DNA from: an uncultured Rubritalea sp.
GTDB taxonomy: Bacteria; Verrucomicrobiota; Verrucomicrobiia; Verrucomicrobiales; Akkermansiaceae
Assembly (NCBI GenBank): GCA_937132085.1
Contig: CAKZNV010000119.1
Location: 1 to 64,000 of the forward strand
Length of the DNA: 64,000 nt
Reading direction: 5' to 3'
The notes under the pieces are model-generated. The model saw nothing but the letters and a program-made list of their open reading frames with translations. It ran no database searches and had not been told where the DNA came from. This document shows positions 6,728 through 12,529 of the stretch, in pieces; the first letter of the stretch is position 1, and every line of letters starts with the position of its first letter. A program made the position numbers and the translations under genes.

Positions 6728-8860
<2,133 letters not shown>

Positions 8861-8878
8861 GTAATAACAAATCGTATA

Positions 8879-8914
8879 AAGCCGCTTCCTTGAAAGGGAG
8901 CGGCTTTTTTATTT
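8879..8914 (+). terminator. thiC terminator
   Basis: AAGCCGCTTCCTTGAAAGGGAGCGGCTTTTTTATTT. Confidence 0.85.
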
Positions 8915-8933
8915 CCTAGCACCTAATCGCTGA

Positions 8934-9084
8934 TGTAAAGATATTCACTATTTCTTATCACAATTAAACTAAAGCATATAAATATCTCTATTTTCTTTAC
9001 ACGACACACACAAAACGTATAGATATTAACGATTTCTATACACATTAACACCAAAAGACATAAATTCCATCACTTTTCTTATCA
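8934..9084. repeat. Four-copy array of 27-bp imperfect dyad sites (N6-N15-N6) upstream of fic
   Basis: Sites at 8934-8960, 8975-9001, 9016-9042 and 9058-9084, each with an internal ...TTTC before the right half-site; start-to-start 41, 41 and 42 bp. Confidence 0.6.
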
Positions 9085-9088
9085 TATT

Positions 9089-10168
9089 ATGCGTCCGCTC
9101 CAAAAATTCGACTACTCCCGCTTTGAAACTATTCCGATCCTGAAACGTCTCAACTCGGCGACTCGCCAGCTCGCTGAGCTGAAAGGAAAAGCAGCGACTA
9201 TTCCCAACCAAGCCATCCTTATCAACACACTGGCTATTCAAGAAGCCAAAGATAGTTCCGAGATCGAAAACATCATCACTACACACGATGAACTATTCCA
9301 AGAAGATCTCAGTGCTAAAAGTGCACTAAAGCCTGCTGCGAAAGAAGTTCTTCGCTATCGAGAAGCCCTCTGGGAAGGCTACCATAGCGTTGCCCAGTCT
9401 GAGCTACTCACAAATCAAACCATCCTGCAAATACAAAGCACACTGGAGCAAAACAATGCAGGCTTCCGCAGAGTCCCAGGCACAGCACTCAAAAACGAAC
9501 AAACGGGAGAAACCGTCTACACTCCCCCACAAGACCAGCACGAGATACAGACCTTCATGCAAGATCTTGAAACCTTTATCAATGATCCAGAACTCTGCTC
9601 TATAGATCCACTCATCAAGATGGCACTCATTCACCACCGTTTCGAATCTATACACCCCTTCTATGATGGAAATGGGCGCACTGGCCGCATCATCAATGTC
9701 CTCTATCTAGTAAAAGAAAACCTCCTCAATATCCCCACACTCTACCTCAGCCGCTACATCCTCCAGACCAAGCAAACCTACTACCGGCTCCTCCAGCAAG
9801 TCCGCACCGAAGACAGCTGGGAAGAATGGATAGAATACATCCTCACCGCCATTGAGCAGACCTCTATCCACACCATCAAGACCATTAGCCAGATCAAAGA
9901 CGCATTCCAAGACTACAAGCTACGCATTCGTGCTCAGCACAAGTTCTACAGCCAAGACCTCATTAACAACCTCTTCACCCACCCCTACACCAAGATCGAG
10001 TTCATCCAAAAAGACCTCAAAGTCTCACGCATCACCGCTACCCGCTACCTAGACGAACTCTGCACCACAAACTTCCTCCACAAACGTAAAATAGGCCGCA
10101 CCAACTTCTACATCAACCCAGCCCTAGTCCCCATCCTTTCCAATCCACCCAAATTTCAACTACCCTAA
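9089..10168 (+). CDS. Fic family protein (putative AMP transferase)
   Basis: Fic motif HPFYDGNGRTGR, N-terminal Fic_N-like region with SSEIENI, C-terminal winged-HTH-like region. Confidence 0.93.
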   Translation: MRPLQKFDYSRFETIPILKRLNSATRQLAELKGKAATIPNQAILINTLAIQEAKDSSEIENIITTHDELFQEDLSAKSALKPAAKEVLRYREALWEGYHSVAQSELLTNQTILQIQSTLEQNNAGFRRVPGTALKNEQTGETVYTPPQDQHEIQTFMQDLETFINDPELCSIDPLIKMALIHHRFESIHPFYDGNGRTGRIINVLYLVKENLLNIPTLYLSRYILQTKQTYYRLLQQVRTEDSWEEWIEYILTAIEQTSIHTIKTISQIKDAFQDYKLRIRAQHKFYSQDLINNLFTHPYTKIEFIQKDLKVSRITATRYLDELCTTNFLHKRKIGRTNFYINPALVPILSNPPKFQLP

Positions 10169-10535: not shown

Positions 10536-10740
10536 CCTAAAACGCCAATTAATCGCTAAAGCTACCATCTCAACCTAATTTCATTTTAAAATACAGTAAA
10601 TTTACATGAAACTAAAATAACACTGTGAAATTCCCTAAGACATCGCCTCCATTTACTAAGCTTACAAAGTCGATCTCAGGTGAGAGAATGCTGGAAGCGA
10701 TGAAAAAGGTAGGCTTGCAGGACTTAGCAGATGCTACTTT

Positions 10741-10906
10741 TTGGGGTTCTTGAATAGTGTGCGAACTTCAGTTGAGTTTAGTTGTGCTAAAGTAGCTTCG
10801 TCCATAGCTAGAGCGACAAAGCAACGGCTCTGAACTTTTCTGCGTTAGCTGATTCTGTAGGTGTTATAGTCGAGTGATGAAGCCTTGATAGTAGTTTAGA
10901 TTTGTA
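10741..10906 (-). pseudogene. Degenerate copy of the 66-aa basic-protein gene at 11284-11484
   Basis: AGTGTGCGAACTTC(A/T)GTTGAGTT...GTAGCTTCGTCCATA(G/C)CTAGAGCGACAA...GATAGTAGTTTAGATTTGTA matches the intact downstream gene and leader in colinear order. Confidence 0.75.
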
Positions 10907-10959: not shown

Positions 10960-11134
10960 TGTAAAAAATTCTCCAGTTTCTTTACACGTTAGGCAATTTC
11001 CACGCTTTGATGTAAACAAAAGGGCATTTTCTTTACATGTCGATGATTTCACGTTTTATCGACATATTAGAGTGAAATGTTGATGAGATCGACATATAGT
11101 TCAAACGTGTCGACGATTTGCGTTTTTATCGACA
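10960..11134. repeat. Second cluster of 27-bp dyad sites (TGTAAA-N15-TTTACA and TGTCGA-N15-TCGACA)
   Basis: Perfect 6-bp half-sites at 10960-10986, 11011-11037, 11038-11064 and 11108-11134. Confidence 0.65.
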
Positions 11135-11194
11135 TTTATTGTTGAAAGATACTTACTCCTACAAATCCACTGGTTTTCATTTTAGGTAAGAGCA

Positions 11195-11243
11195 CAAAAA
11201 AATCCCCATGCTACTCAGGATATCTGAGCATCATGGGGATCTA
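11195..11243 (-). terminator. Terminator for the 66-aa gene
   Basis: ATCCCCATGctaCTCAG-GATAT-CTGAGcatCATGGGGAT hairpin; minus strand continues into TTTTTT. Confidence 0.7.
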
Positions 11244-11283
11244 TCTGCCTGATCAGGATGACCAGACGAAGTTAGTAGGAAAA

Positions 11284-11484
11284 TTATGCCTTATGAGCGT
11301 CACTTACCTTTTTTGGGTGCTTAAGTAGTGTGCGAACTTCTGTTGAGTTCAATGCTGCAACAGTAGCTTCGTCCATACCTAGAGCGACAAGGCGGCGGGC
11401 TTGCACTTTTCTGCGCTGTGTTTTTGCACCAGCTGATTTTGTAGGACGAGATCTGTTCGGGTTACGCTGTAATGTAGTAGCCAT
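11284..11484 (-). CDS. Small basic protein of unknown function
   Basis: 66 aa ORF MATTLQRNPNRSRPTKSAGAKTQRRKVQARRLVALGMDEATVAALNSTEVRTLLKHPKKVSDAHKA; a degenerate copy nearby suggests a real gene. Confidence 0.65.
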   Translation of the reverse strand: MATTLQRNPNRSRPTKSAGAKTQRRKVQARRLVALGMDEATVAALNSTEVRTLLKHPKKVSDAHKA

Positions 11485-11881
11485 AATAGTAGTTTAGATT
11501 TGTAGTTAAAGATGTTAAAAACCGCCTGATCGACAAACTCGAACCAGCTCGGTCTGCCGACTATTAGACAACCTACTAGGATCAGTCAACTGCAAATCAG
11601 TCGAAACTACGTCTGACGTCCCTGGAAGTTGATAGCTAAATGCCTCCATACGAGAACTTTACTTACTTAACGTAGTTTAATTTAGTGAACAGAAACCAAG
11701 TTTAACCTAGTTTCTCTTTTTATGATAAACTTAGGTAACTTCAGTGCAAATGGAATAGAAACCCTATTTTGTATACTTACACACTTAAATCCGGATCAAA
11801 AATGATAGATAAACCACTTAAAATTAGAACACTACACAAAAAGATGATTGACTGAAGCATCTTTGATGACATTATTGACGC

Positions 11882-12136
11882 ATGAGAACAACGATTACGA
11901 TTGATGATGATTTATTCAAAGATGCGGCCAAGGTTTTAGGTGATGGTAATATTTCTAGTCTTATTACCAAAGCTCTGAAGCAGATCATTGCGTCTGATAG
12001 GAAAAAGAGAATATTGAGACTATCAGGGGCCATTCCTGACTTTGCGATTCCCGGTAGAGATTCGCGCTCGGATTATAGATATGATAATCTTGAGGCGGGA
12101 GAGACTCCAATAGTCGCTGAAGATCCTAAACTATAA
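11882..12136 (+). CDS. vapB: VapB-like antitoxin (DUF2191/RHH type)
   Basis: MRTTITIDDDLFKDAAKVLG N-terminus; immediately upstream of a PIN-domain ORF. Confidence 0.8.
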   Translation: MRTTITIDDDLFKDAAKVLGDGNISSLITKALKQIIASDRKKRILRLSGAIPDFAIPGRDSRSDYRYDNLEAGETPIVAEDPKL

Positions 12137-12148
12137 TTCGATACCTCT

Positions 12149-12529
12149 GTGAACGTTCTCGCTGACACTAACATCTGGAGTAAGTATTTTCGCTACGGGA
12201 ACTCTACACTGAGCTCGCTGATCGAATATGATTTCCTGTCGATCCATCCGCTCGTAATCGGTGAGCTGGCTGTGGGTAATTTACCCAAAAGAGATCAACT
12301 CATCGAAGACCTCCATACTTTCCCAACAGTTAAGCCTGCCAGCTACGAGGAAACTCATTTTCTTCTGAGAGAGCATCAGCTCTGGGGTAAAGGTATTCAG
12401 TGGAATGATCTGCTAATTCTAGCTTCTGTCATTGCCAGCCCAGACACGCTACTCTGGACCAATGATAAACGCCTCGCTGAAATAGCGCAGCAATTTTCGG
12501 TGAATTATTCACCAATAGAGTCTGTTTGA
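12149..12529 (+). CDS. vapC: PIN-domain toxin (VapC-like), probable non-ATG start
   Basis: LADTNIWSKYFR, IGELAVGN, ILASVIASPDTLLWTNDKRLAEIAQQF typical of PIN ribonucleases. Confidence 0.85.
   Translation: MNVLADTNIWSKYFRYGNSTLSSLIEYDFLSIHPLVIGELAVGNLPKRDQLIEDLHTFPTVKPASYEETHFLLREHQLWGKGIQWNDLLILASVIASPDTLLWTNDKRLAEIAQQFSVNYSPIESV

What the first reader, a model, noticed from the sequence alone, without database searches (positions are those of the whole stretch)
8934..9084. Phased array of four 27-bp dyad operators upstream of fic
TGTAAA-GATATTCACTATTTC-TTATCA, CATATA-AATATCTCTATTTTC-TTTACA, CGTATA-GATATTAACGATTTC-TATACA and ACATAA-ATTCCATCACTTTTC-TTATCA start at 8934, 8975, 9016 and 9058, i.e. 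41, 41 and 42 bp apart, about four helical turns. The last ends just before the fic ATG. The phasing suggests cooperative binding, possibly by the Fic C-terminal wHTH itself.
Basis: seen in the sequence. Interest (0 to 1): 0.66.

Follow-up and report, generated by a model that had tools for sequence, protein, structure and literature searches.

The report
Self-binding operator array of Fic toxin
A toxin-like bacterial enzyme (a SoFic-type Fic protein) has a row of evenly spaced DNA sites beside its gene; the same spacing and a matching DNA 'word' recur beside its relatives across bacteria, so the enzyme very probably binds these sites itself to control its own gene.

Summary
Three 27-bp dyads (8934, 8975, 9016; 41 bp apart) are real; the fourth (9058) is only a half-site, in register. 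A motif built from other genomes, without this window, ranks the three 3rd-5th of 63,970 positions. Ranks 1 and 2 are further dyads in the window (10960, 11011), part of an array left where a second fic was probably lost.

Across 91 homologous fic upstreams, 27-bp dyads repeat at 41 bp (33 of 43 spacings; the rest 40 or 42). The half-site follows recognition-helix residue 315 of the Fic winged helix: I/L/V/P/M gives TGTAWAG, Q gives TGTT or TGTCG; eight of eight later-fetched genes fitted. In 10 of 23 Bacteroidota loci a half-site is fused to the -7 promoter box. So Fic very probably binds a one-faced half-site lattice and represses its own promoter. In about 25 homologues the array instead follows the fic stop codon, often before a restriction gene.

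A Fic-HTH autorepressor is known (CccR), with a different operator; SoFic DNA binding was undemonstrated as of 2023. New variant of a known kind. All evidence is computational; no binding was measured.

The parts
8878..8907 (+). intrinsic terminator after thiC; separates fic from thiC, so fic needs its own promoter
   Evidence: 13-pair stem plus T run; thiC by Pfam ThiC_Rad_SAM
8912..8921 (-). weak distal half-site TTTCCTAGCA, roughly in lattice register
   Evidence: half-site score 6.2
8934..8960 (.). operator dyad 1, TGTAAAGATATTCACTATTTCTTATCA
   Evidence: rank 4 of 63,970 with a PWM built without the window
8975..9001 (.). operator dyad 2, CATATAAATATCTCTATTTTCTTTACA
   Evidence: rank 5 of 63,970
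9016..9042 (.). operator dyad 3, CGTATAGATATTAACGATTTCTATACA (best symmetry)
   Evidence: rank 3 of 63,970
   Evidence: half-site score 8.7, chance about 0.2% at this register; full dyad score -6.4, rank 531
9089..10168 (+). fic: SoFic-like protein adenylyltransferase, 359 aa, with Fic motif HPFYDGNGRTGR and N-terminal inhibitory motif SSEIEN
   Evidence: Pfam Fic_N, Fic, SoFic-like_C; SoFic models best in NCBIfam and PADLOC; PDB SoFic E 1.6e-84
9923..10126 (+). C-terminal winged helix (residues 279-346), proposed DNA reader
   Evidence: PF21248 SoFic-like_C; AlphaFold mean pLDDT 86.8
10028..10066 (+). recognition helix, residues 314-326 (R314-I315-T316...); residue 315 covaries with the operator half-site
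   Evidence: helix H314-326; covariation
10960..10986 (.). second array, dyad TGTAAAAAATTCTCCAGTTTCTTTACA
   Evidence: rank 2 of 63,970; 91% identical to DNA upstream of a second fic in a congener (L024)
11011..11037 (.). second array, dyad TGTAAACAAAAGGGCATTTTCTTTACA, 51 bp from the previous one
   Evidence: rank 1 of 63,970
11038..11134 (.). adjoining TGTCGAT-type half-sites (centres 11041, 11061, 11081, 11091, 11111, 11131), the operator type of a lost AKRQ-type fic
   Evidence: half-site scan; L024 has the same array in front of its fic
11146..11197 (.). scar: 52 bp where the congener L024 carries about 1.2 kb with its fic gene
   Evidence: flanks align to L024:451-634 and L024:1838-2231

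Best explanation
The array is the operator of the adjacent fic gene, read by the C-terminal winged helix of the Fic protein itself. Each 27-bp dyad holds two convergent half-sites (TGTAWAG) whose centres are 20 bp apart; the next dyad's nearest half-site is 21 bp away, so half-sites lie about every 20.5 bp (two turns) on one face of the DNA. A Fic dimer occupies each dyad, and neighbouring dimers can touch (inferred). Occupancy of the row across the fic promoter shuts off transcription, so the toxin keeps its own level low; loss of free Fic or of its DNA binding would derepress it. Shown computationally: the array, its conserved geometry, and covariation with the Fic recognition helix. Inferred: dimer binding, cooperativity and repression.
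For: A PWM built without the window finds the three dyads at ranks 3-5 of 63,970. Lag 41 is the top period in 91 homologue upstreams (z 11.9) and 27 the commonest dyad length; successive spacings are 41 (33), 40 (8), 42 (2), and shuffles give 0.7 sites against 104. Half-site centre gaps are 20 (convergent) and 21 (divergent); two-site chains are 9 convergent to 1 divergent. Lattice support is 2434 against 352 off-lattice and 272 shuffled. Residue 315 hydrophobic: TGTA-type 62, TGTT/TGTC-type 3; residue 315 Gln: 2 and 32. Eight of eight later-fetched loci show the half-site expected from the helix. Genome-wide, all 4 pattern matches with at most 1 mismatch lie in this locus. In 10 of 23 Bacteroidota loci (and 2 of 50 other A-type loci) a half-site is fused to the -7 box TAnnTTTG, mostly at -35/-34, which fits promoter occlusion. 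A distant Fic-HTH protein, CccR, is an experimentally shown autorepressor (PMC9755527).
Against: No binding or expression was measured. CccR's operator geometry differs (10-bp boxes 26 bp apart). No sigma-70 promoter was found on the fic strand. In about 25 homologues the array lies after the fic stop, six of them before a convergent gene, which simple promoter occlusion of fic does not explain. On the tree the helix/operator switch rests on about 5 changes of residue 315 and at most 5 independent pairs, too few for a formal test. About a third of homologues had no peak in the stricter scan (54 of 152).
Confidence: 0.85

Rival explanations
1. The sites are operators of another regulator, for example a neighbouring antitoxin or a global repressor, and not of Fic.
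For: Most toxin modules are repressed by an antitoxin (own knowledge); EcSofic has a small downstream antitoxin AS1 (PMC12249575).
Against: The array accompanies fic across phyla, plasmids and changing neighbours with no shared second gene. The half-site tracks the Fic recognition helix. The annotated window neighbours are ThiC, VapB/PIN and SpoU.
Confidence: 0.06
2. The array is transcribed as a row of RNA hairpins, for example a type III antitoxin RNA that inhibits Fic.
For: Type III antitoxin RNAs are tandem repeats beside the toxin gene (own knowledge); the 27-bp dyads could fold.
Against: The two arms of a dyad are no more complementary than arms of different dyads of the same locus (0.700 against 0.700, p 0.48), so there is no stem covariation. 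Lone half-sites stay in register. The sequence tracks a DNA-recognition helix.
Confidence: 0.03
3. Besides or instead of repressing fic, DNA-bound arrays act as a controller or tether: Fic controls the next gene (often a restriction gene), or is held inactive on its array and freed when DNA is damaged.
For: About 25 homologues carry the array just after the fic stop. There fic follows its upstream gene closely (median gap 40 against 172 bp) and the next gene is codirectional in 19 of 25. Next genes include HsdR, HsdS, an HsdM-S fusion, Eco57I and AAA-RloB. DNA binding changes activity of CbFic2 (PMC10628234, title).
Against: In the window the array is upstream of fic behind a thiC terminator; six downstream arrays precede a convergent gene, so no single downstream role fits all.
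Confidence: 0.3
4. Chance periodic AT-rich sequence or a decayed minisatellite.
For: Tandem Repeats Finder reports no 41-bp array here; single dyads in the window are weak.
Against: Independent-genome PWM ranks, 0 of 2000 shuffles, conserved spacing in 91 upstreams.
Confidence: 0.01

Closest known systems
CccR (YPK_0951) of Yersinia pseudotuberculosis, Fic-HTH toxin and autorepressor (PMC9755527)
   Same: Fic domain plus C-terminal HTH; binds inverted repeats in its own promoter as a dimer; represses itself.
   Different: One operator AGATAATCAT-N26-ATGATAATCT, not a 27-bp dyad and not a 41-bp array; CccR is only distantly related to SoFic (29% identity to 3eqx over 45%, per the paper).
SoFic of Shewanella oneidensis (PDB 3eqx, 3zcn, 9tc4) and the Sofic phage-defence system
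   Same: Same domain order and clear full-length homology (E 1.6e-84); wHTH present; Sofic acts by abortive infection through AMPylation (PMC12249575).
   Different: DNA binding not demonstrated as of 2023 (PMC10628234). Its helix (AKRQTAS) predicts TGTCGAT half-sites, not TGTAWAG.
CbFic2 of Coxiella (PMC10628234)
   Same: Fic with wHTH that binds DNA with nanomolar affinity; DNA affects activity.
   Different: Tested only on random DNA; no specific operator identified.
AbiE antitoxin AbiEi autoregulation (PMC3985639, PMC7319586)
   Same: wHTH protein that binds several inverted repeats in its own promoter, cooperatively.
   Different: An antitoxin, not the toxin enzyme; different protein family.
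Restriction-modification controller (C) proteins
   Same: Autoregulated, with operators before restriction genes (own knowledge).
   Different: C proteins are small HTH regulators, not enzymes; the likeness applies only to homologues with downstream arrays.

Membership tests
Fic/Fido adenylyltransferases, class II | Fic domain with HPFx(D/E)GNGRxxR motif | tested here: met
   PF02661 E 6.8e-18; HPFYDGNGRTGR in the sequence
Fic/Fido adenylyltransferases, class II | N-terminal inhibitory helix motif (S/T)xxxE(G/N) | tested here: met
   SSEIEN at residues 56-61; S56, S57, I59, E60 and N61 invariant in 18 aligned relatives
SoFic (NCBIfam NF046030 equivalog) | score above the curated cutoff of 550 bits | tested here: not met
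   378 bits; so called SoFic-like, not SoFic itself
SoFic-like C-terminal winged helix (PF21248) | Pfam gathering score | tested here: met
   72.2 against 27 bits; helix-turn-helix followed by a two-stranded wing in the AlphaFold model
Fic-HTH autorepressors (CccR type) | specific palindromic operator beside own gene | tested here: met
   (computational only)
Fic-HTH autorepressors (CccR type) | operator of two 10-bp boxes with a 26-bp spacer | tested here: not met
   27-bp dyads at 41-bp steps
Fic-HTH autorepressors (CccR type) | measured binding to and repression of own promoter | not testable with these tools
   needs EMSA/footprint and reporter
Sofic plus AS1 toxin-antitoxin | small antitoxin AS1 gene next to fic | not tested
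   AS1 sequence is not in the text read; no ORF of 60 aa or more directly follows fic in the window
Type III toxin-antitoxin (RNA repeats) | stem covariation in the repeats | tested here: not met
   arms vary independently, p 0.48

The most novel reading that the evidence does not exclude
SoFic-family Fic toxins are a large, unrecognised class of sequence-specific DNA-binding enzymes that assemble on one-faced half-site lattices with a simple recognition code (helix residue 315), and in restriction-modification operons they serve as the controller of the restriction genes, coupling abortive-infection AMPylation to restriction.
Probability: 0.4. Interest if true: 0.8.

Novelty: new variant of a known kind. 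Interest (0 to 1): 0.63.

Why it matters
Sofic is a widespread anti-phage toxin, yet how its level is kept low in uninfected cells, and what its winged helix is for, is open. This gives a concrete, testable answer: it reads its own 41-bp operator lattice. A one-residue code predicts the operator for other members, including Shewanella SoFic. The downstream arrays in restriction loci raise the possibility that Fic regulates restriction genes. The orphan array shows that fic genes come and go, leaving operators behind.

Tried and rejected
Tandem Repeats Finder does not see the array. An unrestrained EM motif search collapsed to plain A/T-richness and was replaced by hard assignment with per-sequence background. 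My first reading of relatives' upstreams used some loci in the wrong orientation and was corrected. The RNA-hairpin reading was rejected. Chance was rejected. The fourth dyad was rejected as a full site. I tried to make the helix/operator covariation significant on a tree; there are too few independent switches. Literature searches found no report of an operator for SoFic, but only open-licence papers are held.

Full report
WHAT IS THERE. The interval lies between thiC (6737-8860, Pfam ThiC), closed by an intrinsic terminator at 8878-8907, and fic (9089-10168). The Fic protein has Fic_N, Fic and SoFic-like_C domains, an intact HPFYDGNGRTGR motif and an N-terminal SSEIEN inhibitory motif. It is best matched by SoFic in PADLOC and the PDB, but scores 378 against a cutoff of 550 for the SoFic equivalog; I call it SoFic-like.

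IS IT REAL. The four 27-mers start at 8934, 8975, 9016 and 9058. The 41/82-bp periodicity beats all 1000 dinucleotide shuffles, while the palindromes taken singly do not beat chance. The decisive test used other genomes. From 91 homologous fic upstreams, the window excluded, a palindromic motif emerged: caTGTAaAGAAAat-nnn-atTTTCTtTACAtg. It gave 104 sites in 61 loci, against 0.7 per set in shuffles. One caution: the motif search was started from a consensus I had read from relatives. Site 4 keeps only its right half-site, in register. In the whole 4.46-Mb genome a consensus pattern has four matches with at most one mismatch, all four in this locus (8975, 9016, 10960, 11011), and at two mismatches it finds 8934 and one other place (this pattern was loosened with the window sites in view).

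GEOMETRY. In the homologues, lag 41 is by far the strongest autocorrelation (z 11.9) and 27 the commonest dyad length. Successive dyads are 41 bp apart 33 times, 40 bp 8 times, 42 bp twice, with nothing else. Half-site centres are mostly 20 bp apart within a dyad and 21 bp between dyads, alternating in orientation, so the half-sites face the same side of the helix about every two turns. Chains of just two half-sites are convergent 9 times and divergent once, so the 27-bp dyad is the unit. Arms of one dyad are no more alike than arms of different dyads, as expected for half-sites each read by a protein and not for RNA stems.

WHO BINDS. The half-site varies between homologues and follows the recognition helix (residues 314-326 in the AlphaFold model). 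With I, L, V, P or M at residue 315 the operator is TGTA-like in 62 loci and TGTT/TGTC-like in 3; with Gln the numbers are 2 and 32. The TGTT form goes with SRQTA/TRQTA helices and the TGTCG form with AKRQ helices. By eye, other helices have further words: HRNTA with TGCACA, S/TRKTA with TGGGTA, SKPTA with GGTAAAG. Eight loci fetched after the rule was formed all fitted, although several are close kin of loci used before. On a tree without the wHTH columns, residue 315 changes about five times and the operator type about seven; only three well-supported independent pairs exist, so the formal test has no power. The array accompanies fic in Verrucomicrobiota, Pseudomonadota, Bacteroidota, Chlamydiae, Cyanobacteria and Spirochaetes and on plasmids, beside unrelated neighbours.

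HOW IT WORKS. In 10 of 23 Bacteroidota loci a half-site is fused to a TAnnTTTG box, 34-35 nt (once 42) before the called start codon; among 50 other A-type loci only 2 have it. TAnnTTTG is the Bacteroidota -7 promoter element (own knowledge; papers holding the motif were listed but not read). A Fic dimer on that dyad would cover the promoter. With the autorepressor CccR as precedent (PMC9755527), the best explanation is autorepression by cooperative occupation of the array. Cooperativity, dimer stoichiometry and repression are inferred; the published CccR dimer has its DNA-binding helices about 70 angstroms apart, which would fit 20-21 bp, but that is a distant relative with a different operator.

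A WIDER PATTERN. About 25 homologues carry the array directly after the fic stop codon, not before the gene; only L012 and L065 have both (103 lattice peaks against 12 off-lattice). In these loci fic follows its upstream gene closely (median gap 40 bp against 172) and the next gene is codirectional in 19 of 25. Next genes include HsdR (L053, L097, L110), HsdS (L059, L105, L220), an HsdM-S fusion (L078), an Eco57I-type enzyme (L084) and AAA-RloB (L090). So in restriction operons Fic may control the next restriction gene; but in six loci the next gene is convergent, which I cannot explain.

THE SECOND ARRAY. Window 10960-11145 is 91% identical to the DNA upstream of another fic in a congener (L024), and 11198-11596 is 81% identical to the DNA downstream of it. 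The fic gene between is absent. The two TGTAAAG dyads there (51 bp apart, five turns) are the strongest sites in the window, and TGTCGAT half-sites follow. The simplest reading is a lost AKRQ-type fic whose operators remain; the surviving Fic may still bind the TGTAAAG pair, as a decoy or by looping (speculation).

NOVELTY. Fic-HTH autorepression is known from CccR. New here are the 27-bp/41-bp lattice operator of the SoFic family, the residue-315 code, the downstream arrays in restriction operons and the orphan array. DNA binding by SoFic had not been shown by 2023 (PMC10628234), and I found no later report in the held library; subscription papers are not held, and the newer SoFic structures (9tc4, 9tch, 9tcl, 9tb0) may come with a publication I could not see.

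Noticed in passing
window 10960-11197: Orphan operator array and deletion scar of a second, AKRQ-type fic that a congener (L024) still has.
   Followed up: yes
L053, L059, L072, L078, L084, L090, L097, L105, L110, L220 and others, 0-140 bp after the fic stop: Operator arrays lie directly downstream of fic, often before restriction-modification or other defence genes.
   Followed up: partly
L077, L092, L113, L119, L216, L236 after the fic stop: Downstream arrays whose next gene is convergent, where a promoter role for that gene is impossible; unexplained.
   Followed up: no
L012, dyads at 1361/1402/1443 and 2557/2598/2639 in the orientation of fic: fic flanked by two near-identical operator arrays as direct repeats, which could recombine and delete fic.
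   Followed up: partly
window 10734-10850 and 11287-11484, minus strand: A 66-aa ORF of no Pfam family with a decayed partial copy (72% identity, two stops) on the other side of the orphan array.
   Followed up: partly
window 11882-12529: VapB / PIN-domain toxin-antitoxin pair next to the orphan array.
   Followed up: partly
G075:C268 (L010): A fic homologue split by about 2.6 kb of DNA (residues 3-82 and 74-352 lie 2.6 kb apart).
   Followed up: no
L026-L036 upstream of fic: More distant Fic_N/Fic proteins also carry nearby dyads with other half-sites (for example TTATTAAAG-like).
   Followed up: no
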